Shown here: positions 9,720 through 36,908 of the stretch, one piece after another
Layout: each line of letters opens with the position of its first letter
How positions within the stretch are numbered: position 1 is the first letter of the stretch
Source of the DNA: Prevotella sp.
GTDB lineage: Bacteria > Bacteroidota > Bacteroidia > Bacteroidales > Bacteroidaceae
Direction: 5' to 3'
Length of the DNA: 51,666 nucleotides
Assembly (NCBI GenBank): GCA_017509155.1
Contig: JAFWQE010000177.1
Span: 1-51,666, forward strand
Notes under the pieces: generated by a model
The model's database searches: none
The model's input: only the letters and a program-made list of their open reading frames with translations
What the model was told of the DNA's origin: nothing
Program-made: the position numbers and the translations under genes

Positions 9720-11249
9720 TTACTGAATGAACACCTTTCTGGAGGTGCCATCGGCGTTTTGCTCTATGCACAGTCCCTTGGGCTGGGCCAGCCGGCGGCC
9801 CTGCAGGTCGTAATAGGTCTTGGAACCTGCTGCGGCATGCGTCAGCTCCTTGATGCCCGTGCCGTCGTTGGCTATCTTGAAGATGTATGTAGCCAGGCAC
9901 TCTGCGGGCAGCTCAACGGTCAGCTTGTTCGTAGGCTCTGCCACCTCGATGGGGTATTTCTGGCAGAGCTCGTCGCGCTCATTGCCCCACGACAGCAGCA
10001 TTTCGCAGTCGGTGACGTTGCAAGGCAGCTTGACGATGAAGTCTCTGTCGGAAGCAAGGGTATTGATGGCCATCACAATCAGCGAGTCGCCCTTGATGAA
10101 GGCCGAGGTCTCAATGGCAGCATTGGTCGTGAGGTCGAAACTGCAGGTGGACTCCAGAAGGGTGGAGCCGGTGACATTCTTGGCAAAGTGAGACATCACG
10201 TAGGCACGGGGCAACAGCTTGTTCTTCGTGCGGTTCGCCTCGCCGTACTTCGTCTCGCCGGTACTGATGAATGCCCAGTGGGCGCGCATATACCAGTAGA
10301 TGTAGCCCGTGCAGCCTGCCTGCAGGCACTCGTTCACGGCCTCGGCAAACTCCAGCTGCTCACGCCAGTTGGGCAGACGGTCCTGAATATTGTCGGACAC
10401 GGAGTGCTCCGTCATCCACACTTCCTTGCCATATTGCTTGGCCAGCTTGGCGGCGTTCTTCAGGTTGCCAAGTGGCGGATGACCGTAGATGTGACCGGCG
10501 ATGATGTCCACCTGGTCGCGCGCAATGGGGTCGTTGAGCAGCATGTTGGAATAGTTCGGGTCGAAGCCTAAAGGCTCGGCGCTGATGAGGCGCACGCCAT
10601 TATACTTCTCACGGTCGAGCATGTAGGCATAGTTCTTCACCAGGTTGAGCTGCTCCTCCGGACTATAGAGGCAGCCGGAATAGCTGACCCACCAGTCGGG
10701 CTCGTTCTGAACGGACACGGCATCCACGTCGACGCCATGGTCGTGCATCCACTCCAGAAACAGGTTCAGCCACGGGAAGAACTTGTCGTAGCAGTCTGTG
10801 CGCAGCTTGCCGCGCTGGTTGCCCTGGTCGTCGGAGTTTCCGCCCTGGGCGGTGCCATTGGTCTTGTATTCTCCGGGAGGCGACCACGGCGTACCGAAGA
10901 CGATGCCGCCGCGCTGCTTCACAATCTTGGCAGAGGGCAGCGAGCCGTTCCAGTCGTAAGGGGTGTCCCAGTAGTTCCACTCGGGCACCTTCACGTCGCC
11001 CACGAAGTTGGGCGAAATCTCCATGCGCATGATGTTCAGGCCGATGGCCGACTCGTCGCCATAGAGCAGCTTCACGGGCTGCGTGTCGCTGGCGAAGGGT
11101 TCCATGGCGCCGTAGCAGCAGGCTGCGCCGAAACCGGTAATCGTCTGCAGGCGGTTGCCGGTGATGGTAATGGTGACTTTCGGTAGGGCGTAAGCAGCCG
11201 TGATGGCCGTCAGCGCCAGAAAAAGGGTAATGATTTTTCTCATTGACAT
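9720..11249 (-). CDS. GH30 endo-xylanase (subfamily 8-like), secreted
   Basis: A 509-residue secreted xylanase of family GH30. It has a signal peptide (about 1-22), a (beta/alpha)8 barrel with a beta-sandwich, acid/base Glu183 in VSVQNEPDWW and nucleophile Glu281 in VWMTEHSV. GITGFGAACC-like and NIMRMEISPNF motifs at the N-terminus also fit. GH30_8 enzymes are typically glucuronoxylanases that cut next to methylglucuronic acid side chains, using an Arg after strand 7; here Arg322 in IYWYMRAHW is the candidate. The last 35 residues (YYDLQGRRLAQPKGL) are a Bacteroidota C-terminal tail like those of type IX secretion substrates. The gene has its own promoter (11444-11474) and a 190-nt leader containing a G-rich palindromic repeat. 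Family assignment is firm; dependence on glucuronic acid is inferred. Confidence 0.9.
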   Translation of the reverse strand: MSMRKIITLFLALTAITAAYALPKVTITITGNRLQTITGFGAACCYGAMEPFASDTQPVKLLYGDESAIGLNIMRMEISPNFVGDVKVPEWNYWDTPYDWNGSLPSAKIVKQRGGIVFGTPWSPPGEYKTNGTAQGGNSDDQGNQRGKLRTDCYDKFFPWLNLFLEWMHDHGVDVDAVSVQNEPDWWVSYSGCLYSPEEQLNLVKNYAYMLDREKYNGVRLISAEPLGFDPNYSNMLLNDPIARDQVDIIAGHIYGHPPLGNLKNAAKLAKQYGKEVWMTEHSVSDNIQDRLPNWREQLEFAEAVNECLQAGCTGYIYWYMRAHWAFISTGETKYGEANRTKNKLLPRAYVMSHFAKNVTGSTLLESTCSFDLTTNAAIETSAFIKGDSLIVMAINTLASDRDFIVKLPCNVTDCEMLLSWGNERDELCQKYPIEVAEPTNKLTVELPAECLATYIFKIANDGTGIKELTHAAAGSKTYYDLQGRRLAQPKGLCIEQNADGTSRKVFIQ

Positions 11250-12303: not shown

Positions 12304-14442
12304 TTACTTAGAGATGTACTTCTTGCCGTTCTTCACGACGATGCCCTTGTAGTCCTTAGACACACGCTGGCCAGCGAGGTTGTAAGCAGCAGAAGAAGCG
12401 GGGTTGTTGACAGTCAGGGTGCTGATAGCATCCGGATCTGAGAACACGTGAGGCTCGGTGCCTGCACCTTCCTTCACGTAGAAGTTGTCAGCGCCAGTCA
12501 TGTTGATGAGCGTCTCGGTGTTGTCAGCGAGCTTCCAAACGATGTTCTTGATGGTGTAGTCGCAAGCGCCACGGATTTCGGCCATGTTGAATGCGATGGA
12601 CTTCATGCCCTTGCCTGCGCACTCGTTAGGAATGGTGAATGTCATTTCGAAGTGCTGCTCCTCGGGAGTGAAGTTCACGTCGCCGATGGCACCCCAGTGG
12701 ATGTAAGCACCGGGAGCTGCGTGGCACTGAGTAGTGGTCTTAGCCTCAACAGAAGAAACATAGTCGAATGCGATGACAGTCTCCTCACCAGCGTCGAGCT
12801 CACGGTTGGCAACGATGAAGAACTGGTTGTCCCAAGGCTGACCTGTGCCACCCTCTTCTTCATTCACGGTGTCACCATCGGTAAGGTCGTCGCGCTCCAG
12901 TCCGTGAACGACAACAACGGTCGGGTTGGGCTTCACGTCGATGGGCTGACGGTCTTCCTCACCTTCAACCTTGATGAAGTTCATCTGCTTGCCTTCGGTG
13001 TCGATAGAGATGGTCCATACACCAGCTGCGGGGAGCTTGATCTTTGCAAGGCTGGCCTCGGTGTAGTCGAGCCATGTGTCGGGATCGCTGGTGACAGTGC
13101 CCTGAGGCTTCAGAGTAGCGCCCTTGAAGGCAGCGTCGTTACCGCGGATGGTGGAGATCATCACCTCGTTCACCCATGTGTCCTGCTTGCCTTCCGTACC
13201 AACAGTAGCAACGATCAGGTCATCATCCTGAACAAATTCGGTAGCATTGTCGAAGTCATACTCCAGACCCGTAGTCGTGTTGCAGGCAGCAACAAAGTAA
13301 CCTTCGTCGAGTTTCATCTTCTCCCAAGAGAGGTCGTCGAAGTAGAAGTTGATGGCATCCTTGTCGCTGGAGTTCAGGTTGAAGGCAATAGACCAACCAC
13401 CGTCCATGTCAGACTCAAATGTAATGGTCTTATCAAACTCCTGCCACTCTGTGGTGAAGGCAACATCGCCAATGGCGTGCCAGATGAGGTAGTCAGAGGG
13501 GTTCTGCTTGTGAATCTGAGTGTTGCAAGAAACGTTCTTAGAAGCCTTGTAGCGGAACTTGATTCTGACCTGAGTGCCAGCCTTCCAAGACTGCGGCGAC
13601 TGGATCCAGAACTGGTTGTCCCAAGCAGCGGCATCGCCCTCGGTGATAGCGGCCTGACCATGGCAAACAAACACGTGGCTGCCGTCAACCTCTTCGATGT
13701 CAGCGGGGAAGGGATCCCAACCTTCGCCAGTCTCGTTCAAGTTGCGCATGCGCTCCTTCGACCAAGCACAAATCTTGTAGTTGTTCTCCTGATCGTTGTA
13801 CTTTACGTTAGCGAGGTCGCCCCAAGGTGTCTCAGCATCGCGGTGCTCGTCGAGCATCTGAATCCATTCAATGGGACGCTGAGCCTTCTGGTTGTGGGAA
13901 ACGGTGAGCCACTTCCACTCAATCTGTGCAGCGGTATTGGGCTGAGCAACGAGGTTACAGCTGGTGCCGCCGATTCCGGAGTACTCCCATTCAACCTCTG
14001 CCCATTCGGTGCCGATGTTGACAGAAGCACTGGCCTGCTGGCCTTCGCCCCAGCCCCAGCCCATGTTGACATTGATGGTGACAGCCTCAGAGGCCTTCAC
14101 CATAGCCTTAACGGTGTAAGCACCATCGAGCTCTGTGGGGATACCATCAGCAATGAAATACTGGTGCCATGTGCCATCGCTGGGAAGACGATAGTACTCA
14201 ACGCCACTGTGGGTCTTAACGATGACGTCGCTGGTTTCACCGGCTTCATTGTCGAGTGTCACGTAACGGTAGTTACCGCCCATGTCGGTCATCACACCGT
14301 TGAACCATTCCGGCACATAGCCCATCACATAGAATGGGAAGCCAGAATACGTAGAGTAGTCGACCTTGTAGTCTTCTACCCACTCTGCCTTTGCTCCCAT
14401 GAAACATGCCAAGAGAGCAACAAGTGTAAACAATTTCTTCAT
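12304..14442 (-). CDS. Multi-module carbohydrate-binding surface protein (last gene of core operon)
   Basis: A 712-residue secreted protein without a recognisable catalytic domain. The signal peptide is about 1-19; the LLAC at 10-13 could alternatively be a lipobox. I see three jelly-roll-like modules: about 20-195, 225-375 and 535-660. Modules two and three are clearly duplicates: both contain WDNQF(W/F)I, a HWGAIGDV/WHAIGDV core followed by F(T)..EWQ/EEQHFE, and SIAFN(L/M). This is the pattern of CBM4/CBM9-like domains. Between them (about 395-520) is a segment like the SusE/SusF type (GVWTISIDTEGKQMNFIKVEG). The protein ends with NLAGQRVSKDYKGIVVKNGKKY, a common Prevotella C-terminal tail. 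From its place behind XusE and the GH10-like protein, I infer a xylan-binding role at the cell surface. The gap upstream (208 bp) carries a palindromic repeat. Confidence 0.75.
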   Translation of the reverse strand: MKKLFTLVALLACFMGAKAEWVEDYKVDYSTYSGFPFYVMGYVPEWFNGVMTDMGGNYRYVTLDNEAGETSDVIVKTHSGVEYYRLPSDGTWHQYFIADGIPTELDGAYTVKAMVKASEAVTINVNMGWGWGEGQQASASVNIGTEWAEVEWEYSGIGGTSCNLVAQPNTAAQIEWKWLTVSHNQKAQRPIEWIQMLDEHRDAETPWGDLANVKYNDQENNYKICAWSKERMRNLNETGEGWDPFPADIEEVDGSHVFVCHGQAAITEGDAAAWDNQFWIQSPQSWKAGTQVRIKFRYKASKNVSCNTQIHKQNPSDYLIWHAIGDVAFTTEWQEFDKTITFESDMDGGWSIAFNLNSSDKDAINFYFDDLSWEKMKLDEGYFVAACNTTTGLEYDFDNATEFVQDDDLIVATVGTEGKQDTWVNEVMISTIRGNDAAFKGATLKPQGTVTSDPDTWLDYTEASLAKIKLPAAGVWTISIDTEGKQMNFIKVEGEEDRQPIDVKPNPTVVVVHGLERDDLTDGDTVNEEEGGTGQPWDNQFFIVANRELDAGEETVIAFDYVSSVEAKTTTQCHAAPGAYIHWGAIGDVNFTPEEQHFEMTFTIPNECAGKGMKSIAFNMAEIRGACDYTIKNIVWKLADNTETLINMTGADNFYVKEGAGTEPHVFSDPDAISTLTVNNPASSAAYNLAGQRVSKDYKGIVVKNGKKYISK

Positions 14443-14650: not shown

Positions 14651-16315
14651 TTATTTTCCGCTGAGTGCGTCGCAGAATGCCTTGTAGGTGGCAGTGCGCA
14701 CCCAGTCCTTGCTATTGGCGTCGATAGCCCAGAGGCCCACAGGATCGGTGGTGTCCGCGAGGTTGCCCTTGCAGATGCCGGCCTGCTTGTCGTTTGGAAT
14801 CTTGGACATGTAGCTCTTGATGACATGACCGTAGAAGTCGGCAAGCCTCTGACGCTGATCAGCAGAGATACTCTTTGCTGCTACACTTACACCCGCTTCG
14901 TCCTGATACTTGATGTCGAAGTTGGAGAGACGGATAAGCTTGCCCGTGGAAGCAAGGTTGTCGAGGAGGGTGTTGAGAGATGCCTCGGTGGCTGCCTGCA
15001 CTTGCGGATCCTCGCTGTAGACGAGATTCAGCTTGGCATTGATGCCATCGATCTTTGCGCCGTTGGCGTCCCAGATGTTGATCCAGTACTTGAGACTCTC
15101 GAATTTCTTCTGGTCATCGAGACCCGACTCGCTGATGAAGAACTTCAGCTCTGCAGGGTTGCCGCCATACTTTTCGAATGAAGAGCTGGCCACGCGCGAC
15201 ACTACGGGTGCATAGTTCTCGCTGCCAAGCACGTCCTGCCAGAAGATGCTCTCGGTGGAGTGCTTCAGGTCGTACATGCCGTTCTCGAGCTCGGCCTTGC
15301 TGTCGATAGCCTCGTCGATGAGGTCGAACGACTTGATGCGGCCTTCGTTGATCTTCATCAGACCGTCGCACCATGCGTTGAGGGCATAGTTGATGGTGTC
15401 TGTCCTCTCCTGAGCTGTCTGCGGACGATGGTTGTCGGGGTAGTAGCCTACCTCAACCTTCTGGATATAGAGAACGGCACTACGCGTGTTCTCAATTCTC
15501 AGATAGCCCTCCGTAGCGTCGGGTGCACTCTGAGCCTCGACCACGACCTTAGTCCACTTACCAGGCTTGAGGGTCCACTTTCCGTCAGGACCGGTTCCGT
15601 CAACCTTTTTGCCGGAGAAGGTAATGTTGTAGGATGCTTCCTTGTCAACCTTTACCCAGAAGGTCGTGGTATATTTAGCGAGCGGATCCACATCGAAGCC
15701 TTCAATGATGCGCACTTGGCCTGGTGTCGGAGTGGCACTGATCTGAAGAACATTCTGATCATCATACTTGACGATAGATGCCTTACCCTTGTCTACAGTA
15801 CCAGGAAATTCTCCTACAGGCATATCATTGTAGTTAACCTTCTTTCCTTCTACGAAATCAACCTGGATTTCAATGGGAGCCGTGAGCATGTTGAGCCAGT
15901 CGTCAGCCTGATTGGCATTGGCAACAATAGGACTGCCAAACACCTCACCGCCGATATCCTCTACATGGTCGAGAAGGTCCTTCATGTCGAGGAAGTTCAT
16001 GATACCCTTGGCATTGACGATGTTTCCCGACATGAGCGTGGTGCCGAAAGCAAGGTTGTCGAAGTTGGTGACGGCTGCGGCATGCGCCAGTTCCTGCTTG
16101 TTGAAGTCAGTCACTTTGAGCGTGGCACCAAGAGACATGTTGGCATATTTGCTTCTGTCGATGTACGACTTGATAGGAGCCAGGTCCTTGTACGGCTCTA
16201 CGAAAGTGGGATCGGGCTGAGCGACAAAGTCGTCAGTCTCGTTATAGTCGGCACAGGACACAGCGAGTGCGCCTGCAGCCAACATATAAAGACCGTTTCT
16301 TAAAATTCTGTTCAT
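14651..16315 (-). CDS. GH10-fold lipoprotein with degenerate active site (putative surface xylan-binding protein), in the xyn10C position
   Basis: A 554-residue predicted lipoprotein (LAVSC, Cys21). It aligns by eye with a GH10 xylanase split by a carbohydrate-binding module: the first GH10 part is about 44-150, a CBM4/22-like insert about 150-295, and the rest of the barrel 300-552. The order matches Xyn10C of P. bryantii and the Bacteroides xylan clusters, where the gene follows xusE. But the catalytic site is gone. The nucleophile motif TELD is S464-N-F-D467, so Glu is replaced by Asn465. WDVVNEA is F330-D-L-I-D-E-A336, so the Asn is lost though Glu335 remains. RGHTLVWH is F126-G-S-P-I-V-A-N133. 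The QxH motif is K428-L-N430. I therefore infer a non-catalytic xylan-binding protein. Spacing to xusE is 18 bp. The fold assignment is strong by pattern but not computed. Confidence 0.78.
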   Translation of the reverse strand: MNRILRNGLYMLAAGALAVSCADYNETDDFVAQPDPTFVEPYKDLAPIKSYIDRSKYANMSLGATLKVTDFNKQELAHAAAVTNFDNLAFGTTLMSGNIVNAKGIMNFLDMKDLLDHVEDIGGEVFGSPIVANANQADDWLNMLTAPIEIQVDFVEGKKVNYNDMPVGEFPGTVDKGKASIVKYDDQNVLQISATPTPGQVRIIEGFDVDPLAKYTTTFWVKVDKEASYNITFSGKKVDGTGPDGKWTLKPGKWTKVVVEAQSAPDATEGYLRIENTRSAVLYIQKVEVGYYPDNHRPQTAQERTDTINYALNAWCDGLMKINEGRIKSFDLIDEAIDSKAELENGMYDLKHSTESIFWQDVLGSENYAPVVSRVASSSFEKYGGNPAELKFFISESGLDDQKKFESLKYWINIWDANGAKIDGINAKLNLVYSEDPQVQAATEASLNTLLDNLASTGKLIRLSNFDIKYQDEAGVSVAAKSISADQRQRLADFYGHVIKSYMSKIPNDKQAGICKGNLADTTDPVGLWAIDANSKDWVRTATYKAFCDALSGK

Positions 16316-16333: not shown

Positions 16334-17464
16334 TTATTTTACGTATTTGGGTGAGAAGAATACTTTCTGGTTAGACTCACGGGTCTGAACAACGAGGGTG
16401 TCGGTGGTTGACACCTGGATGTCGCTGTTCTTGAAGTTCACTTCGTAAGCCAGACGGAGGATGTCGCGCGATACGGGCTTGCCGTTCATGCTTCCCCACT
16501 GGTAGTCCTTGTATTCTGCCCTATCCGTTCCGTTGACGATGAATTCGCCGGAACCAGTGGCGGTCACGTTCTCATCGTCGGTGGACACTGTGCACTGATT
16601 GCCATTGAACGTAAGGATGAGGTTGCAGGAAATGGAGGCGGAGTTGCCGGCACGCTTAAAGGAAACCGGGAAGATGGCCTGCGACATGTTCTTTGTGGTG
16701 ATGCCGCAAATCTCGTCGTTCTGGTTAACCGGGTTCTCCTTGTAATGATCGAGGTCGGAATTCACCAACGTGAAGTCCTTGCGGACTACCTTGATGGTAT
16801 TGCCTTTCTCCGTCACATTGTCGACACCGCGGCGGATATACTTGCCCTGCCAGGGGTTCATGTACCTCACGCAGTAGAGCACATAGTCCTTGGCCAGAAC
16901 ATCCCAGTCCTCGGTATTCGTGCGCGACGGCGACAGGCCTTCACGCGGTGTGCCGGTGAGGATGTGGTCGATGCCTCTGACGCTTTTCATCACCAGAGGA
17001 ATGACGTATGTGTTCTTCGTGGCATTGGGGTCGCTGAAGAAAGCGTCGGTGAACTGCACTTCCACATAGCCGCGAGGGTCACCCTTGTAAGGAATGACAT
17101 TGGACGAAAGCTGATAGTAGGCCGATGGCATGGGCAGCACGGGCTCTGATGCGTTTCCACCATCGTCGACAAACCAGAGGTTGTCGCAGAGAGTGGGATC
17201 GACAGCTATTTCCACGTATGCGTCACGTCCACCGTAGGCACCGCCCATGGTCGACCAGATACGGCACTTGTGCTCGTTGTCGAGTGTATTGTCGTAGATG
17301 TCGTTGCCAAGCACGAGTGTACGCACTGGGAACTGATAGGCGAAGTAGGCGGTTGTGCCTCCTTCATAGTCGGGGAACTCGTTCTCATCATTATAGCAAG
17401 ATGCACAGGTGAGAGAGAGTGCTCCCAAGGCTATTCCGTATATAACTTTATTGAGGTTCATCAT
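16334..17464 (-). CDS. xusE: XusE-like surface lipoprotein (DUF1735 / DUF5627)
   Basis: A 376-residue lipoprotein with lipobox around CASC (Cys20 or Cys23). The N-terminal half (about 30-170, YFAYQFPVRTLVLGNDIYDN, YVIPLVMKS) resembles DUF1735 of surface glycan-binding proteins. The C-terminal half (about 190-376) matches the DUF5627 type and ends in RLAYEVNFKNSDIQ...VFFSPKYVK. In the conserved xylan cluster of rumen and gut Bacteroidota (xusA-xusB-xusC-xusD-xusE-xyn10C) a protein of this size stands in exactly this place. It probably binds xylan on the cell surface together with the SusD proteins. It lies 23 bp after the second SusD gene and 18 bp before the GH10-like gene, in one operon. Confidence 0.85.
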   Translation of the reverse strand: MMNLNKVIYGIALGALSLTCASCYNDENEFPDYEGGTTAYFAYQFPVRTLVLGNDIYDNTLDNEHKCRIWSTMGGAYGGRDAYVEIAVDPTLCDNLWFVDDGGNASEPVLPMPSAYYQLSSNVIPYKGDPRGYVEVQFTDAFFSDPNATKNTYVIPLVMKSVRGIDHILTGTPREGLSPSRTNTEDWDVLAKDYVLYCVRYMNPWQGKYIRRGVDNVTEKGNTIKVVRKDFTLVNSDLDHYKENPVNQNDEICGITTKNMSQAIFPVSFKRAGNSASISCNLILTFNGNQCTVSTDDENVTATGSGEFIVNGTDRAEYKDYQWGSMNGKPVSRDILRLAYEVNFKNSDIQVSTTDTLVVQTRESNQKVFFSPKYVK

Positions 17465-19370: not shown

Positions 19371-22328
19371 TTAGAGAGTTACCTTAACACCAAGATTATA
19401 GAAACGAGTCTGTGGTGCATAGCCAACGCTTGTCTCCATCATCTTGCGATGCTTGGAAATCGTGAGAAGATCGTTTCCGTTCAGATAGACCGAGAGAGCC
19501 TTCACCCACTTTCCTTCAAAGATATCCTTGGGGAAATCGTAGGTAAGCTGAATCTTGCGAAGATTGAAGCGGTCGGTGCTGTAGAGCCAGAAGGTAGAGC
19601 CAGCGGCATTGTTTGCCGAGCTCAGCGAAGTCAGACGAGGATGCGTTGCCACATCGGCTGTCTCCGGTGTCCAACGGCCACGAGCATTAACAGAGTACTT
19701 GGCTTCTCCACTCATATAGAAGTAACCGCCGTTCATCATTCCCTTACCACCGTACTGGCCATTGCCGAGCATGAAGAGCGTGAAGTTCTTATACTTCAGC
19801 GTGAGGTTCAGTCCGATGTGCCAAGGAGTGCCGATATTGCCAAAGCCTGTATTGTCGCCGAGGTTGTTTACCTGACCGGACCTGCCAAGGACAATCTGGT
19901 CTAAGTTAGTGATGACACCGTCACCATTTACGTCCTCGTACTTCAGGTCACCAGGCTGGATGGCGCCGCCGAGCTGCGACCTAGGCACTCCGTCCTTCAG
20001 AGCATACACCGTCTTACCATCGGCTGTGGTCGAGATGTTGAAGTCATCGGCTGTATAGAAGCCAAGGCAATTGTAGCCCCAAAGAGCGTCAAGCCACTGT
20101 CCCTCTGAGTATTTGTGAGGCGCATTCGGATCGAGGGTCTCATCGATTTTCTTCCACTTGGTTGTGACATAGGTACCGACGACACCGAGCTGTGCGTGAA
20201 CCTGACCGAACTGCTTCTGAGCCGTTACGCTGAAGTCGAAGCCTTTGCGGTTCTGGATATCGTTGTTGAGGGCGGGCTTGAATGAACTGCCATTGAGACC
20301 ACTCTGCAAGTGAGAGGGAATGATTGACGGGGTCTGAGGAATGAATCCATCCATATCTGTATTAAAGAATGTAAGGTCGGTGGTGATGAGCTTGTTGAAG
20401 AACGAACCACGGAGACTTACAGAGAACTCCTTGCGATGTACGAAGTCAAGAGCCGGGTTGGAACCCGTCTTGGAGAAAGTATAGTCTGTGCTGACTCCTT
20501 CATTCCAGGAGAAGCTGCCGCCGATTTTATCCCACAGGGCATCATAGATGTAGAAACTATCGTCGCCCATATACACATCGGCGTCCTCGTTCAGGTCGCT
20601 ATAGGATGCACTGAGCATCAGGTCATCGATGAAGCTTCCGCTCAGGAAGTTCTCCTTGGCAATGTTCCAACCAAGTGTGAACGACGGTGAAATGGCTTCG
20701 CGATTGCCTTTGGGAAGACGTGCGGAATGAACACCGGCGAACGAAGCGTCGGCAAAGTAGCGACCCATATAGTCATAACCAACCTGCAAACCTAAGTTGA
20801 CGTTTGCATAACGATGGTATGCGCGGCTGGCTGTCGTGGTGTACATGTTGCCCAGGAACATTCCCGTTACATGATGCTTGCCACCGAATGTGTGGTCGTA
20901 GTCGAAATGACCGTTCCAGCTGATTGTCTGACGGTACTTGGTATCCGACATAGACATGTGACCTGTCACAAGTTCGTCGTTCTGCTGAGTAATACCAACG
21001 ATAATGTCCTGAGAGTTATAGTTACTCCAAGTCGGGATAAACACAGCATACTTGTTGTTGTACGACAGGCTGTAGTTGGCAGCATAGTCGATGGAGAACA
21101 TCGTCTTGAACGACAGACCTCTCACGAACTTATCCAAATCGTAGATAATACCTGCGTCGAACTGGAACTGACGGCTCACAGCTCTGGTCTTTCCACCGAA
21201 ATAGCAATCGGCGATGGCATTGGTCTGGGTATTCTTCGTACCACCGGGGAAATACTTTCCGTCGAGAAGGTTCAGAGACTTGCCAAGGATGGCGAGAGCC
21301 TTTGAAGCATTCGGGTCGACCATGTCAATAGAAATCAGCGGAGCTGCGTTTTCCGGGAAGTTCGGACGCATGGATGCTGCGTCGCTCCAGAAGTTGCCTT
21401 TGTTCTGGTTGGCATTGTAGAACGTGGCACTCACATTGGCAAAACCCTTGACGAGCTTGTTGACGACGAGGTCCACATTACCACGCACGCTGAAACGGTC
21501 AGTGTAGTTATCCTTTGCCGGACCGAAGTTGATCAGGTCTTCGAAGCGATAGTAATTGATGTTCGTGTAGAAGTGAGCACGTGTGCCACCACCCTGAATC
21601 TCCAATGTTGCTTCAGAACGGTTGTAAACCTTGCGGATATACTCATCTGAATAGTAGTTGACATTGGGATAACGATAGGGATTCACACCTGCGGCGTGGT
21701 TGTAGATGGCCTGCTGTGAATACTCGGGCTTAGGTCCAAGTCCATCGTTGATACGGGCTTCGTTGTAAAGTGTCATATACTCTGCGGAACCCAAATACTC
21801 AGGAAATTCCTTGGCCACATGGAACCCAGTATTGGCGTTTGCCGTAATCTGGAGTCCGTCCACCTTTCCGCGCTTGGTAGTGATAAGGATAGCGCCCTTG
21901 GCACCTTTAGGACCGTAGAGCACCACAGCCTGTGCACCCTTGAGGAAAGTGACCTGCTCGATTTCTGAAGGCAGCACGTTGTTTGACGGGCGCTTCACGC
22001 CGTCGATGATAACAATCGGAAGGTTGGCATTGTCGTTGTTGTCAAGCCGCTCATTGTCCATACCCCAAAGGTTGTTGCCGTTCCATCCGCCGACAAGTGC
22101 ATACATGTCTTCAAGGCTACCCATGGTATAGTCCTTCTTCTGCAGCTCTTCCATGTCGACATAGGAAATGCCTCCGAGAAGATGGTCGGGATCCTTGTCG
22201 CGGAAAGCAACATGGACTTTCTTTTGTACCACGACAGAATCAGCCTCGTCCTCGACCTGTGCATTGACCGTCAGTGGCGACACCGCAAGCATGGCAAAGA
22301 GAATTATGTTTGTTTTTATCTTTTCCAT
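19371..22328 (-). CDS. xusC: SusC-like TonB-dependent transporter (second pair), short N-terminus
   Basis: An outer-membrane TonB-dependent channel for xylo-oligosaccharides, 985 residues from the start chosen here. I prefer the Met at 22328 (MEKIKTNIILFAMLAVSPLTVNAQ, a good signal peptide). The alternative at 22361 adds 11 residues from a low-complexity TTTTCAATT tract. Unlike the first SusC, it has no CarboxypepD_reg-like domain: the plug begins almost at once (LPIVIIDGVKR, GAQAVVLYGPKGAKGAILITTKRG). The barrel then continues to the C-terminal RFYNLGVKVTL. A shortened N-terminal extension is known for some SusC paralogues. It is encoded just downstream of the first SusD, 46 bp from its stop codon, and 26 bp upstream of its own SusD partner. 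Confidence 0.94.
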   Translation of the reverse strand: MEKIKTNIILFAMLAVSPLTVNAQVEDEADSVVVQKKVHVAFRDKDPDHLLGGISYVDMEELQKKDYTMGSLEDMYALVGGWNGNNLWGMDNERLDNNDNANLPIVIIDGVKRPSNNVLPSEIEQVTFLKGAQAVVLYGPKGAKGAILITTKRGKVDGLQITANANTGFHVAKEFPEYLGSAEYMTLYNEARINDGLGPKPEYSQQAIYNHAAGVNPYRYPNVNYYSDEYIRKVYNRSEATLEIQGGGTRAHFYTNINYYRFEDLINFGPAKDNYTDRFSVRGNVDLVVNKLVKGFANVSATFYNANQNKGNFWSDAASMRPNFPENAAPLISIDMVDPNASKALAILGKSLNLLDGKYFPGGTKNTQTNAIADCYFGGKTRAVSRQFQFDAGIIYDLDKFVRGLSFKTMFSIDYAANYSLSYNNKYAVFIPTWSNYNSQDIIVGITQQNDELVTGHMSMSDTKYRQTISWNGHFDYDHTFGGKHHVTGMFLGNMYTTTASRAYHRYANVNLGLQVGYDYMGRYFADASFAGVHSARLPKGNREAISPSFTLGWNIAKENFLSGSFIDDLMLSASYSDLNEDADVYMGDDSFYIYDALWDKIGGSFSWNEGVSTDYTFSKTGSNPALDFVHRKEFSVSLRGSFFNKLITTDLTFFNTDMDGFIPQTPSIIPSHLQSGLNGSSFKPALNNDIQNRKGFDFSVTAQKQFGQVHAQLGVVGTYVTTKWKKIDETLDPNAPHKYSEGQWLDALWGYNCLGFYTADDFNISTTADGKTVYALKDGVPRSQLGGAIQPGDLKYEDVNGDGVITNLDQIVLGRSGQVNNLGDNTGFGNIGTPWHIGLNLTLKYKNFTLFMLGNGQYGGKGMMNGGYFYMSGEAKYSVNARGRWTPETADVATHPRLTSLSSANNAAGSTFWLYSTDRFNLRKIQLTYDFPKDIFEGKWVKALSVYLNGNDLLTISKHRKMMETSVGYAPQTRFYNLGVKVTL

Positions 22329-22374
22329 AAAATTGTCCATTTTCAGATTTTCAATTTTCAATTCTTAATTGTCT

Positions 22375-24384
22375 TTACCATCCTGGATTTTGAGCGAATC
22401 CTTCGTAAAGATAGATATCCTTGTCAGGAAGCGGGAACCAGTAGTGCTTTGATTCCAGACGACGGGTAATCAGCTCCTGCTTGTGGAAGTTACCGATGCG
22501 TGCGTCCTTCGGATCGTGGTCCTTAAACCAAGCGGCTGTTTCCAAACGCTCGAACTCGTGAGAGTACTTCACCGTGTAGGGAGGTTCAGTCAGGAGAAGC
22601 CAGCGCTGCAGGTCGCACCAGCGGAAGCCTTCGAAGGAAAGCTCCACAGCGCGCTCACGGCGTACTTCATCGATGAAATGCTCTCTGGTGTCACGGAGAT
22701 TAGCTGCAACGTGTTCCATAGGATAATCGGCAGAGTTGACGCGGTCGCGGAGCGCGTTGATGGCATCAACAGCCGACAGCTGCGGGCAATAGAGAGGCCT
22801 TTCGGTCAGCTGGCTGGCACCCGTTGCGATTGCGGCTCTTGCCTCGGCATACATCAGATAGATGTCAGCAAGGCGCATGTAGGGAAGATAGCTCTGGAAG
22901 CTGTAATCCCAATCGTACCATTTGTCGCCCTGGTTACACTGGTGAGGAATGAGCTTCTGAATGAAATAGCCCGTGCTGCTGCCATGGTCGATGTCGCGCA
23001 TGGCGCCACCGGTGAAGAGGTCGCAGTACTCAAGCTTTTTCTGGTTTTCATTCAAGGCATCTGTACTCAGTACGTAGTGGAATCCGTCGAACACGATATC
23101 ATGATAGAATCGTGGGTCGCGGTCTTTGTAAGGATGCTCGGGGTCCCATCCAGAAGCAGGATTCAGCACATATTCACCGTTCCGCACCAGATAGATGGGC
23201 TGTCCGTTAGCCATTCCGTACTGGTCTATGAGGTTGGCTGTGGGATGGTGGATGATGTTGTCGTGGTCTACGAGACCTGCCACCTTCGGGCCAAAGATCT
23301 TAGCGCAGTTCCAGTTGGCAGAGTTTGCACCGGGATAGACACCGCGGAAGATAGCCTCACAAGAGCCAGGCATCTTCCAGCTGTCCTTCACTGTGTAGAA
23401 GATGTCTGAATAGTTGGTCTCTGCATTGTCATCACGCACATGGTCGTAGATGTTAGAGTACCTGTACTCAGCGAGTTTGTATTTCACACTTCCCTTGACG
23501 ACCAGGTCGAGAGCCCTACCGAGTGTCTCAGCTGCCTTCTGGCAGTACTCCACATCGTAATCGTATGTCTTGCCGTTTGAGCTTGCGCCCAGCAGCTGAG
23601 GAGAGCCGCCGTTCTTGGCCTTCTCCATCTCCTTCATGAGCGGAGAACCTGCCCAGAGGTAGCACTTGCCAAGATAGCAGAGCGCCATGAACTTGTTGAC
23701 GCGCAGTTCGTTCTTTCCTGAGGTCTGCATACCAGCAAGTGTCTCGTCCCAGTCCAGGGGAAGGAGATTGTAGGCTCTTTCGAAGTCTTCAGCACAGCGG
23801 TCGGCGCACTCCTGGAAACTGAGTCGTGGGAGCTCGGGGATGCTTGTTGCCTCGAAAGTCTGGTCAATGTAAGGCAGACCACCGAAGTAGCACATCAGCT
23901 CGAAATGCCACCATGCGCGGAAGAAATACATCTGCCCGAGCAACAGGTCGCGCTCCTCGTCACTTCCGACGAGCGACTTGATCTGCTCAATACCCATATT
24001 ACACTTACGGATGCAGTACCAAGAGTTTCTCCAGAGTGAGCTTCTGTCACCATTGAGCCAGCACTGAGTGTTGTTGTACCAGTCACGATAGTTGCCGAGG
24101 TCGACCTGATGGTCCATGTGAGCATAGCCTTCAGGGTTGTGTACGGCATCGTCGCCAAAATTCCATGCAGTACAATAATTGACCTTCTGCTTGTCAGGAA
24201 TCAGGTTATAGATTTCCTCTATATATCCCTGGAAGTTGCGGTAGTTCTTGAATGCCTCATCCTCAGCCACGATAGACTCTGGGTCCTTGTCGAGCCAATC
24301 GGTGCAAGAAGTGAAGGAAGCACCGCCAGCCAGGACAAGCAGCGAACCGCACAGAAGGGATTTGATATTATTATTATATTTCAT
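22375..24384 (-). CDS. xusB: SusD-like nutrient-binding lipoprotein (first pair)
   Basis: A 669-residue SusD/RagB lipoprotein (FTSC, Cys27). Typical features are LLLGQMYFFRAWWHFELMCYFGGLPYID (TPR region), LPYMRLADIYLMYAEARA and RRERAVELSFEGFRWCDLQRWLL. The end, YWFPLPDKDIYLYEGFAQNPGW, is canonical. It pairs with the SusC gene 14 bp upstream and corresponds to XusB in order and size. It is expected to bind long xylan fragments on the outer membrane. Nothing is odd in the frame or in key motifs. Confidence 0.95.
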   Translation of the reverse strand: MKYNNNIKSLLCGSLLVLAGGASFTSCTDWLDKDPESIVAEDEAFKNYRNFQGYIEEIYNLIPDKQKVNYCTAWNFGDDAVHNPEGYAHMDHQVDLGNYRDWYNNTQCWLNGDRSSLWRNSWYCIRKCNMGIEQIKSLVGSDEERDLLLGQMYFFRAWWHFELMCYFGGLPYIDQTFEATSIPELPRLSFQECADRCAEDFERAYNLLPLDWDETLAGMQTSGKNELRVNKFMALCYLGKCYLWAGSPLMKEMEKAKNGGSPQLLGASSNGKTYDYDVEYCQKAAETLGRALDLVVKGSVKYKLAEYRYSNIYDHVRDDNAETNYSDIFYTVKDSWKMPGSCEAIFRGVYPGANSANWNCAKIFGPKVAGLVDHDNIIHHPTANLIDQYGMANGQPIYLVRNGEYVLNPASGWDPEHPYKDRDPRFYHDIVFDGFHYVLSTDALNENQKKLEYCDLFTGGAMRDIDHGSSTGYFIQKLIPHQCNQGDKWYDWDYSFQSYLPYMRLADIYLMYAEARAAIATGASQLTERPLYCPQLSAVDAINALRDRVNSADYPMEHVAANLRDTREHFIDEVRRERAVELSFEGFRWCDLQRWLLLTEPPYTVKYSHEFERLETAAWFKDHDPKDARIGNFHKQELITRRLESKHYWFPLPDKDIYLYEGFAQNPGW

Positions 24385-24398
24385 AATAGGTATAGCGA

Positions 24399-27300
24399 TT
24401 AAATGTAAAGCTTAAATCCGAAGTTATAACGTCTCACTGTGGGGTAAGCACCGCCACCGCCACTGAAGTTCATACCATTACCTGTCACATTACCCTCACG
24501 GTCGTCGGGCATCTTTGTAATCAGGAAGAGGTTATTACCGTTCACATATATCTTCAGGCTGGTGAAGCCAAGCTTCTTAATCCAGCCCTTTGTCCAGGTG
24601 TAAGCCACCTCCACATTCTTGAGTCGGAAGTAAGAACCGTCGAAGAGATACTGTGTACCGTCGTTGTAGGCAACCTGAGAGGTGAAGCGAGGAACGACAA
24701 CCTCACCTGTTCCGTCCACAGGATTCCACCATGTACCATTGTCATAAGCCGTAAGCAGCTTATTGTTGAACGAAGGCAGACCCACGTCACGGGTAACGCC
24801 TGTCACACCGTAGAGCTGTGCAAACATGCTAAAGCCTTTCCACTCCCAGCCGATAGTGGCATTGTAGGTGTGTTCCGGGTTTCCGGTGTAACCGTAAGGA
24901 GCCTGGTCGTTGGTCTGGTCGACAACGCCGTCACCGTTGAAGTCCACGATATAGTGGTCGCCAATCAGCACTTGCTCGTCGCTGGTCTGACGTTCCGGTG
25001 AACTATAGAGCTCGTCGTATGTCGAGATGAAGCCGTTGTCGATAAACGAATGGAACTGTCCCTGGGAATAGCCCTGAGCCTTGCGGTAGGACGGGAACAA
25101 TGCGGGGTCATCCTTCAGCTTGATCACGTTGTGGGCGTATGTGTAGTTGGCGTTTGTCCAGAAACGCATGCCGTTCTTCAGAACCTTATTGAAGCGAACT
25201 TCAACCTCGAAACCAGAATTCTTCATCTTACCCTTGTTGATGTCAGGCGTTCTTGCTGCACCGTAGTATGACGGAACGGAACGCTCGCCACCTGAGATGA
25301 AGATATCGTAGCGGTCGTCGCGGAACCAGTCGAAAGTACCTGCGAACATGCCGCCGAGGAATGAGTAGTCGAAACCGATGTTCTTCTTCGACACCGTGGC
25401 CCAGCGCAGGTCAGGCATGGCAATCGTTGCCTCCTTGTATCCTACGAAGGGACTGTCAGAACCGTCGATGGACATTTTGTAGCCATTTCCGTTGTTGGTG
25501 ACCTCCCAACCTGTCATGTATGCGAAACGTGCACCAGAACTGTCATCACCAATTTCACCGATAGATCCACGGATCTTCAGCATATCGATGATTCGCTTGT
25601 CCTTCAGCGGTTTCATGAACTTCTCTTCCGAGATCATCCATCCGGCAGCTCCCGAGCAGAAGAATGCGAAACGATTGTCGGGAGAGAACCTCTGCGAACC
25701 GTTGTAGGCACCGTTGAACTCAGCGAAATAGCGGCTGTTATAGTCGTAAGTGGTACGGAACACCCAGTCCTCGCGACGATTCTCGAGTTCGCTATTAAAA
25801 GCATCAATACGACGCTTCCAGTTACCCATTGCTGTTATATTGTGCTTGCCGAACTCGCGTCCCCAGAAGAGCTGGAGCGACATTTCCGTTGCACGGAATG
25901 TCCTGCTGACATTACCATATTCATCTCTCCAGTCGCGGCTTTCGTAGAAGTCGAAACCCGTCTTGGCGTTAATCTCGTCAGCCCAGAGCATCTGTCCGTC
26001 TTCAGGAAGGATGTAGGCCTGTTTCTTGGTGTGAGTGTCAGAAATACCGCGGTCAGCCTCGTCGAACTGGTTGTCCCAAGAGATGGTGCCTCGTGCGACA
26101 AGACCCTTTGTAACGAAGTCGAGCTTCTGCTCAACGGCAAAGTCGGTGAACACACGCGTGATGGTTTTCAGCTCATAACCCGATGTTGCCACGTTGGCAG
26201 GAGAGTTGGCGATGTTAGACACCAGCTTCGAGTAACCCCATGAACCGTCAGAGAACTGAACGGGGAAGAGGTTAGGAGCCATACCGTAGGCACCGGCCCA
26301 GTTCTGCTGCTGGAAGAACTCGCCATTATTACCATAATAATAACGCGGGGTCTTCTGCTGGGCGTTAGAACCAGCCAGGTTAACACGGAACTCTGTGGTC
26401 TTCGTAATCTGGAAGTCAAGGTTTGAACGCACGTTCAGACGATTGTAAGTATAACCGCCCTCATAGCCCTGGTGGTTGTCCCAGATCTTGGTCATGTCAC
26501 CTTCGTTCTGGAAGTCGAACGACACGAAATACTTCACAAGTTTCGTACCACCAGAAATATTAAGGTTTGTATTATACGACAATGCCGTGCTCTTGAACAT
26601 CTCGTCCTGCCAGTCAATGTTCGGATAGCGCTCAGCCTGACTGTAGTCGCCGAGGTAGATACCGTCGGCAGAATAGTTAGGCTTCACGGTGTAGTCCTGA
26701 TTGCGGAAGTTGTCGATGAATGTCTGCGGACGGTAGTAAGCCCAGGATGCAGCGCCGCCCGTGGGCAGAGCAAGCTCGTGCTCAATGGCCTGGTTGCGCA
26801 GCATGTAGGCGTCGTATGAGTCGTACTTGCGCGGAAGTTTCGACACAGCCTTCAGCGTAGCATTGAAGCCGACGTCGATTCTTGCCTTACCTTCCTGACC
26901 ACGCTTGGTGGTGATAAGGATAACGCCGTTAGCACCTTCCACACCATAGACGGCCGTGGCAGATGCGTCCTTCAGCACTGAAATGGTTGCGATTGACGTG
27001 ATGTCTACCGACTTGATTTCACGCTTCACGCCGTCTACGAGGATCAGCGGCTGGGCGTCAGTGTTCCAGGCTGCTGCACCACGGATGTAGATACGTGGGT
27101 CTTCATCACCAGGCTGTCCGGTAGAAGCGATGGTCGCAATACCAGGAAGGTTACCGGTGAGGGCGGCACCCACACTACCGATACCGGCTGCGCGTTCAAG
27201 CACTTCACCCGTTGTCTGCGTGATGGCACCTACCACAGAAGCTTTCTTCTGCTGGCCATAGCCGACAACAACCACTTCTTCAAGCTGGGTATCGTCATCT

Positions 27301-27632
27301 TCAAGCGTCACTCTGTTCTCTCTGTCAGATGTGACTCTCACTTCTTTCTCTTTCAGACCAACGTAAGTCACGATAACAGTACCCTTACCACCTGGCATTT
27401 TTAACGAGAAGTTTCCGTCGATGTCGGTAATAGTTGCATTCCTTCGGTTGTCCTTCTGAACAACACTTGCACCAATAACCGGCTCGCCGCTGCTGTCAAT
27501 GACGACACCCTTGACTAGGCCCTGAGCAAATGATGGCAATGCAAAAACCATCATAAGCAGAGCTAGAACCGATGTCTTTGACGATGTCTTGCGCATGACA
27601 AGATTCATCATCACTTTCAGTTTTTTTGTCAT
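24399..27632 (-). CDS. xusA: SusC-like TonB-dependent transporter (first pair)
   Basis: A 1077-residue outer-membrane transporter opening the core operon. It has a signal peptide (about 1-36), a CarboxypepD_reg-like domain (about 40-115, VKGVVIDSSGEPVIGASVVQ... TDIDGNFSLKMPGG...), a TonB-box-like stretch (LEEVVVVGYGQQKK), a plug (about 135-240, with PLILVDGVKRE and GANGVILITTKRG), and the barrel to YNFGFKLYI. XusA homologues are among the most strongly xylan-induced genes in P. bryantii and Bacteroides. The start at 27632 follows a 106-nt leader from the promoter at 27745-27774. An alternative start at Met13-14 of the listed frame would shorten an unusually long n-region. Confidence 0.95.
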   Translation of the reverse strand: MTKKLKVMMNLVMRKTSSKTSVLALLMMVFALPSFAQGLVKGVVIDSSGEPVIGASVVQKDNRRNATITDIDGNFSLKMPGGKGTVIVTYVGLKEKEVRVTSDRENRVTLEDDDTQLEEVVVVGYGQQKKASVVGAITQTTGEVLERAAGIGSVGAALTGNLPGIATIASTGQPGDEDPRIYIRGAAAWNTDAQPLILVDGVKREIKSVDITSIATISVLKDASATAVYGVEGANGVILITTKRGQEGKARIDVGFNATLKAVSKLPRKYDSYDAYMLRNQAIEHELALPTGGAASWAYYRPQTFIDNFRNQDYTVKPNYSADGIYLGDYSQAERYPNIDWQDEMFKSTALSYNTNLNISGGTKLVKYFVSFDFQNEGDMTKIWDNHQGYEGGYTYNRLNVRSNLDFQITKTTEFRVNLAGSNAQQKTPRYYYGNNGEFFQQQNWAGAYGMAPNLFPVQFSDGSWGYSKLVSNIANSPANVATSGYELKTITRVFTDFAVEQKLDFVTKGLVARGTISWDNQFDEADRGISDTHTKKQAYILPEDGQMLWADEINAKTGFDFYESRDWRDEYGNVSRTFRATEMSLQLFWGREFGKHNITAMGNWKRRIDAFNSELENRREDWVFRTTYDYNSRYFAEFNGAYNGSQRFSPDNRFAFFCSGAAGWMISEEKFMKPLKDKRIIDMLKIRGSIGEIGDDSSGARFAYMTGWEVTNNGNGYKMSIDGSDSPFVGYKEATIAMPDLRWATVSKKNIGFDYSFLGGMFAGTFDWFRDDRYDIFISGGERSVPSYYGAARTPDINKGKMKNSGFEVEVRFNKVLKNGMRFWTNANYTYAHNVIKLKDDPALFPSYRKAQGYSQGQFHSFIDNGFISTYDELYSSPERQTSDEQVLIGDHYIVDFNGDGVVDQTNDQAPYGYTGNPEHTYNATIGWEWKGFSMFAQLYGVTGVTRDVGLPSFNNKLLTAYDNGTWWNPVDGTGEVVVPRFTSQVAYNDGTQYLFDGSYFRLKNVEVAYTWTKGWIKKLGFTSLKIYVNGNNLFLITKMPDDREGNVTGNGMNFSGGGGAYPTVRRYNFGFKLYI

Positions 27633-33348: not shown

Positions 33349-36908
<3,560 letters not shown>

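What the first reader, a model, noticed from the sequence alone, without database searches (positions are those of the whole stretch)
14651..16315. A GH10 xylanase fold without a working active site stands in the place of Xyn10C
Seen: the 554-residue lipoprotein follows the GH10 plan, with a carbohydrate-binding module inserted in the barrel. But the nucleophile Glu is Asn465, the two His and the Trp of RGHTLVWH are replaced (S128, N133, A132), QxH is K428-L-N430, and the Asn before the acid/base is Asp334. Known: in the conserved cluster xusA-E the next gene encodes the active surface xylanase Xyn10C with the same split architecture. Inference: here the enzyme has become a surface xylan-binding protein, and cutting is left to GH30 and GH10-CE1. 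An enzyme-derived binding protein in the core of a Sus-type system would show how surface glycan-binding proteins arise.
Basis: partly seen in the sequence, partly recalled or inferred. Interest (0 to 1): 0.75.

Follow-up and report, generated by a model that had tools for sequence, protein, structure and literature searches.

The report
Dead xylanase kept beside sugar importer
In many gut Prevotella-type bacteria, the slot in a xylan-uptake gene cluster that normally holds a xylan-cutting enzyme holds a conserved protein of the same fold whose cutting site has been dismantled, most likely a xylan-holding protein, and related clusters seem to have made this change several times independently.

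The parts
14651..16315 (-). Inactive GH10-derived lipoprotein (P0001, 554 aa)
15878..16198 (-). N-terminal part of the split barrel, residues 40-146, with T92 and M95 at the former subsite -2 and GSPIVAN (127-133) in place of GHTLxWH
   Evidence: naming of subsite -2 residues is recalled GH10 knowledge
15434..15877 (-). Inserted beta-sandwich, residues 147-294, CBM-like; less conserved than the barrel
14654..15433 (-). C-terminal part of the barrel, residues 295-554, with former acid/base region (D334-E335), QxH (K428-L-N430), nucleophile (N465) and Trp (G517)
16334..17464 (-). XusE-like lipoprotein (BT_3987-like_N, DUF5627); homologous to PDB 3n91, which PMC4491172 identifies as BACOVA_03430
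17488..19344 (-). SusD-like (xusD position)
19371..22361 (-). SusC-like (xusC position); first ATG at 22340
   Evidence: (Plug match below its cut-off)
22375..24384 (-). SusD-like (xusB position)
24399..27632 (-). SusC-like (xusA position)
12304..14442 (-). Protein P2 (712 aa): free-standing array related to the CBM tandem that interrupts Xyn10C; residues 22-374 collinear with it, a further copy at 530-634
   Evidence: follows the dead GH10 in 80 of 80 named loci
9720..11249 (-). GH30-like enzyme of the same cluster
   Evidence: Pfam GH30 28.5 bits, cut-off 23 (GH59 scores higher, 39.3); NCBIfam XynC 139.5 bits, below its cut-off of 650
33355..35580 (+). Intact GH10 fused to an esterase domain (GHCLMWH, WDVVNEA, QGH, TELD motifs present)

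Best explanation
The protein is a catalytically dead descendant of the xus-linked surface xylanase Xyn10C that now serves as a non-cutting surface glycan-binding protein of a Sus-type xylan importer. Shown by computation: GH10 fold; loss of the nucleophile and of most sugar-contacting residues in all orthologues seen; purifying selection; fixed position next to SusC-SusD-SusC-SusD-XusE; core genes that descend from clusters with an intact enzyme. Inferred: it is lipid-anchored on the outer face, the altered cleft plus the inserted CBM-like domain hold xylan chains near the SusCD pores, P2 adds further CBMs in trans, and cutting is done by the GH30-like, GH10-esterase and GH8 proteins. The precedent BACOVA_03431, which does bind xylan, appears to belong to a separate core lineage, so the same change probably happened independently.
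Against: No binding or activity was measured. The acid/base Glu is kept in 90 of 101. The 13 former motif positions are not clearly more conserved than the rest of the barrel: mean 0.883, reached by 1427 of 20000 random sets. The insert, the obvious binding module, is the less conserved part; of its three Trp, W220 (0.63) and W247 (0.53) vary and W254 (0.94) is kept. A comparable dead GH18 in N-glycan clusters (BT1284) showed no measurable glycan binding (PMC11180146), and BACOVA_03430, the XusE homologue, bound no xylan. The barrel tree with all columns joins this group with the other dead group (99/99), and AU does not reject that union on the reduced barrel columns (p 0.086).
Confidence: 0.75

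Rival explanations
1. It is a structural or docking subunit of the SusCD-XusE complex that no longer binds glycan at the former active site; conservation reflects protein-protein contacts.
For: The dead barrel is more conserved than the CBM-like insert; strict linkage to XusE; former motif positions stand out only weakly (1427 of 20000 random sets); a dead GH18 in N-glycan clusters bound no N-glycan; BACOVA_03430 bound no xylan.
Against: BACOVA_03431, in the equivalent slot, does bind xylan; nine positions lost in every orthologue and carrying a mostly uniform new residue average 0.955 (93 of 20000 random sets), but these nine were chosen after seeing the counts.
Confidence: 0.17
2. It is an enzyme with changed chemistry or substrate, using Glu335 with another carboxylate such as the new invariant Glu396.
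For: Glu335 kept in 90 of 101; Glu396 in 101 of 101, Asp in 21 of 21 intact relatives.
Against: Glu335 is Lys in 8, Arg, Asp and Gly in 1 each of 101; the 9 Lys/Arg cases form one subclade with the rest of the pattern unchanged. The nucleophile and nearly all the sugar-contacting His, Trp, Asn, Gln and Lys are gone.
Confidence: 0.06
3. It is a decaying xylanase gene without function.
For: Loss of catalytic residues.
Against: No stop inside in any of the 71 genus matches, dN/dS 0.08-0.28, uniform replacements across 101 sequences.
Confidence: 0.01

Closest known systems
BACOVA_03431 (inactive GH10 surface xylan-binding protein, B. ovatus PUL-XylL; Rogowski et al. 2015, PMC4491172)
   Same: GH10-like surface lipoprotein, nucleophile lost, subsite -2 disrupted, encoded next to a 3n91-type protein; PUL-XylL encodes two SusD-like proteins and a GH30.
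   Different: The sequence of BACOVA_03431 was not in hand. L208 was taken as its type because its XusE is 68% identical to 3n91 and a GH30-like gene follows. The SusD2+XusE genes of L208 belong to another lineage than the window's (union rejected). The L208, L201 and L207 proteins are 737-744 aa with other replacements (GGTL(C/A)S, (I/V)GEPL, ISD), and no ORF beside them matched P2.
Xyn10C-type surface xylanases (BACOVA_04390, BiXyn10A/C, Pm25, P. bryantii Xyn10C)
   Same: Position after susC-susD-unk; GH10 barrel split by a binding module.
   Different: Those are described as active enzymes with CBM4-type modules inserted (PMC7848910, PMC5041131, PMC4491172, passages); here no active site and one insert without a BLAST relation to the Xyn10C-type CBMs of 21 relatives.
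GH18-like dead endoglycosidases BT1284 and kin in N-glycan PULs (PMC11180146)
   Same: Conserved dead glycosidase inside a PUL.
   Different: GH18 fold, N-glycan clusters, no measurable binding found.

Membership tests
GH10 (fold and descent) | Pfam GH10 score over the curated cut-off | tested here: met
   39.7 against 22.1 bits
GH10 (fold and descent) | GH10 (beta/alpha)8 barrel | tested here: met
GH10 xylanase (enzyme) | Catalytic nucleophile Glu | tested here: not met
   Asn465; N in 100 and D in 1 of 101
GH10 xylanase (enzyme) | Acid/base Glu preceded by Asn | tested here: inconclusive
   Glu335 kept in 90 of 101; the Asn is Asp in 97 and Glu in 4 of 101
GH10 xylanase (enzyme) | Subsite -2/-1 residues (Asn, Lys, His-Trp-His, Gln-His) | tested here: not met
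   none kept in the window protein; over 101 sequences Lys95, His128, Trp132, His133, His430 kept in 0, Gln428 in 1, Asn92 in 9
Xyn10C-type surface xylanase | Gene follows susC-susD-unk/xusE | tested here: met
   in the window; XusE directly upstream in 76 of 80 named loci, 3 run off the contig, 1 has an unmatched ORF
Xyn10C-type surface xylanase | Barrel interrupted by a CBM4 tandem | tested here: not met
   one insert of about 150 residues, best BLAST E 0.13 to the Xyn10C-type set
Inactive GH10 surface xylan-binding protein (BACOVA_03431 type) | GH10-like with lost nucleophile and disrupted subsite -2, beside a 3n91-type protein | tested here: met
Inactive GH10 surface xylan-binding protein (BACOVA_03431 type) | Common inactive ancestor with the PUL-XylL proteins | tested here: inconclusive
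   core SusD2+XusE genes reject the union with L208 (p-AU 6.5e-58), but the reduced barrel columns do not reject a union with L163, L164, L166 and L075 (p 0.086), and BACOVA_03431 itself was not available
Inactive GH10 surface xylan-binding protein (BACOVA_03431 type) | Binds xylan, displayed on the surface | not testable with these tools
   lipobox LAVSC read from the sequence only

The most novel reading that the evidence does not exclude
The slot behind xusE repeatedly turns surface xylanases into binding proteins. In this Prevotella lineage the old active site has been rebuilt into a new conserved ligand site (S128, N133, E396, K428, N465, K516) and CBMs of the Xyn10C kind sit in a separate neighbour protein, so that gripping and cutting, once one polypeptide, are now divided among three or more gene products.
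Probability: 0.4. Interest if true: 0.7.

Novelty: new variant of a known kind. Interest (0 to 1): 0.52.

Why it matters
One inactive GH10 binding protein has been described; its authors in 2015 knew no other. Here is a second, larger group in rumen and gut Prevotella-type bacteria, with a close intact relative identified (L056), a sister cluster without the gene (L159), and further separate losses (L163/L164/L166/L208, and L195). That makes the question of how surface glycan-binding proteins arise from enzymes testable as repeated natural experiments. It also warns that counting GH10 genes overstates xylanase capacity: Pfam scores this protein above its GH10 cut-off.

Tried and rejected
Rejected: pseudogene (selection). 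Rejected: the gene belongs to another family and an intact orthologue sits elsewhere. The window genome has 4 other GH10 matches: C154 is 62% identical to the window GH10-esterase, C211 and C97 are distant, and none matches the Xyn10C query at E 1e-60 (2 of 9 candidates scored; genome 82% complete). In L104, L105 and L153 an intact secreted GH10|CBM lies after P2; the three group with other enzymes that do not follow XusE, not with this lineage (L105).

Checked and corrected on recount: an earlier count of 12 of 12 motif positions lost in all orthologues was wrong; 10 are kept in 0, Q428 in 1, N92 in 9 of 101. The statement that former motif positions are unusually conserved also weakened: 13 positions average 0.883 (1427 of 20000 random sets). 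The stronger figure (534 of 20000) included positions 396 and 516, added after they were seen to be conserved. I lowered the novel case from 0.45 to 0.4 for this.

The careful barrel tree joined this group with the second dead group; FastTree left it unresolved. Dropping 20 columns at the active-site motifs removed the join, so I read it as convergence plus long branches, although AU on those columns does not reject the union (p 0.086). The trees also differ on L056: with all columns it pairs with L061.

phmmer of the single protein against PDB gave only weak GH10 hits (E 0.03). NCBIfam gave nothing for this protein. A direct link of the insert to Xyn10C CBMs by BLAST failed. A first IQ-TREE run timed out. 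The metagenome and viral collections were not searched. BACOVA_03431 itself was not found by name.

Counts that are lower bounds: 71 of 398 and 33 of 71, because at most 3 and 2 candidates per genome were scored. The 21 intact relatives (18 from same-genus genomes, 3 from named records) were picked; L075, which keeps both catalytic Glu but has changed other site residues, was left out, as were L070 and L071 (insert only). L165 (run of N) was left out of the barrel trees; L207 and L201 were left out of the last core tree for lack of one gene.

Literature: of PMC4491172 I read section 7 and passages; of PMC11180146 section 6 and passages; of PMC7848910, PMC5041131, PMC7815789, PMC8631079, PMC4855328 and PMC11610566 passages only. 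Other papers were seen as search listings. Nine searches listed no paper that I recognised as describing an inactive GH10 in Prevotella; two searches listed 20 of 48 and 20 of 165 papers, and the library holds open-licence papers only. PMC11610566 suggests, without test, that a Phocaeicola GH10 may be a binding protein too.

Full report

THE ACTIVE SITE. I compared 101 distinct orthologues (131 records; rule: best match to this protein, at least 45% identity, over 500 aa) with 21 intact relatives (18 from same-genus genomes, 3 from named records), picked after their motifs were seen and without the intermediate L075. Eleven GH10 motif positions other than the acid/base are the same in 21 of 21 intact proteins, and a twelfth, Trp517, in 20 with one gap. 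In orthologues, ten of the twelve are kept in 0 of 101 (intact residues K95, H128, W132, H133, W330, N334, Y397, H430, E465, W517), Q428 in 1 and N92 in 9. The window protein has M, S, A, N, F, D, S, N, N, G at the ten, and K428 and T92. The acid/base Glu335 is kept in 90 of 101; it is Lys in 8 and Arg, Asp and Gly in one each. The nine Lys/Arg cases are L039-L047, one subclade. The orthologues were chosen by similarity to the window protein, which favours agreement with it; but in the genus search the identities of long matches fall from 55% to 38% with nothing between. Two hits of 49-51% cover only the insert.

SELECTION. Among 21 non-overlapping close pairs, dN/dS is 0.077-0.278. On the same pairs the medians are 0.17 for this gene (21 pairs), 0.13 for XusE (20) and 0.24 for P2 (20). 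The dead barrel halves (mean majority frequency 0.81 and 0.80) are more conserved than the insert (0.67). The 13 former motif positions average 0.883, which 1427 of 20000 random sets of barrel positions reach, so they are well conserved but not clearly beyond the rest of the barrel. Nine positions that changed in every orthologue to a mostly uniform residue average 0.955 (93 of 20000), but they were chosen after the counts were seen.

NEIGHBOURHOOD. Upstream lie SusC-SusD-SusC-SusD and a XusE-like protein. Among 80 named loci, P2 follows directly in 80, XusE precedes directly in 76, three run off the contig and one has an unmatched ORF. Of 398 genus genomes at least 71 hold the protein (not every candidate was scored), and all 71 hold XusE at 62% identity or more. 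Three further genomes have such a XusE but not the protein: two at contig ends (G033, G036) and one, G156 (L159), where XusE is followed by unrelated reverse-strand genes. Many record titles of the 80 loci name ruminant hosts or carry RUG isolate names (recalled to mean rumen genomes); two isolates are P5-92 and MN60. Eight genomes of two other genera of the family, among 301 searched, also hold it (L167-L174).

ORIGIN. In trees of SusD2 plus XusE, the group and L159 are sister to L056, whose cluster holds an intact 582-residue GH10 lipoprotein and a P2 homologue. A second set of dead proteins behind XusE (L163, L164, L166, and L208 of the PUL-XylL type) and a third (L195) lie elsewhere, separated by clusters with intact enzymes. 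Holding all dead ones plus L075 together is rejected (p-AU 2.0e-31), as is this group plus L208 (6.5e-58, quick tree). L075 is intermediate: both catalytic Glu present, but other site residues changed. The careful barrel tree joined the dead groups (99/99); without 20 columns at the motifs it places this group with L056 (96/97), though the union is not rejected there (p 0.086). At least three separate losses follow if the core genes and the GH10 gene share their history, and if regaining a site is discounted; transfer of the GH10 gene alone is not excluded.

P2. The next gene (12304-14442) has no Pfam match at E 0.1. Its residues 22-374 align collinearly with the CBM tandem that interrupts Xyn10C-type enzymes (L067 residues 157-459, 32%, 7e-33; L065 7e-27; L059 2e-26), with a further copy at 530-634. 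Its homologue beside L056 scores above the CBM_4_9 cut-off. So relatives of the Xyn10C binding modules sit here in a separate protein, and did so before catalysis was lost if L056 shows the older state (inference).

WHAT IS KNOWN. Rogowski et al. 2015 (PMC4491172; section 7 read) showed that BACOVA_03431 of B. ovatus PUL-XylL is a surface lipoprotein related to GH10, inactive through loss of the nucleophile and disruption of subsite -2, and that it binds birch glucuronoxylan and corn xylan. They wrote that no other naturally inactive GH10 was described. Its neighbour BACOVA_03430 is PDB 3n91, which the window XusE matches at 1e-62; BACOVA_03430 itself bound no xylan. XusE of L208 is 68% identical to 3n91. 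The xusA-E and Xyn10C layout and the activity of Xyn10C-type enzymes are in PMC7848910 and PMC5041131 (passages). In PMC7848910 an inactivated Pm25 still bound xylan, mainly through its CBMs. Against a simple transfer of function, a dead GH18 of N-glycan clusters bound nothing measurable.

VERDICT. It is a new variant of a known kind: an inactive GH10 surface protein in the xus core, apparently evolved separately from the one described, under purifying selection in many species. That it binds xylan is likely but unproven. Enzymes for cutting are present: a GH10-esterase with all motifs and a GH8 in the window, and a GH30-like protein whose active site was not tested. At least 33 of 71 genus genomes also hold an intact-type GH10|CBM relative at E 1e-60; none was seen in the window genome (82% complete, 6% contaminated; 2 of 9 candidates scored).

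Noticed in passing
12304-14442 (-): P2 has no Pfam match but is a free-standing array related to the CBM tandem of Xyn10C; its C-terminus (NLAGQR...NGKKYISK) looks like a type IX secretion tail (recalled pattern, not tested).
   Followed up: partly
L070 ORF 5670-8708, residues 863-1012; L071 446-1177: The insert of the dead GH10 is about 50% identical to the C-terminal domain of a BspA-like leucine-rich-repeat protein with a dockerin-like stretch in L070, and to part of a 244-residue ORF in L071, so the module is shared with another type of protein.
   Followed up: partly
L159 4537-5688: XusE of the same lineage with no GH10 gene behind it: the slot can also be empty.
   Followed up: partly
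L209 7251-9722, L210 7051-9561: GH10-like proteins of 824-837 aa in single SusC-SusD clusters with the acid/base motif changed (WDVVQH) but the nucleophile motif kept: possibly another inactivation route.
   Followed up: no
L163, L164, L166, L195, L201, L207, L208: Further GH10-like proteins in Sus-type clusters that lack the nucleophile Glu, with several replacement patterns; L201, L207 and L208 are followed by a GH30-like gene as in PUL-XylL.
   Followed up: partly
L162 7934-9406: A 491-residue XusE homologue (73% identity) without recognised cluster genes around it, in a genome that also has the full cluster.
   Followed up: no
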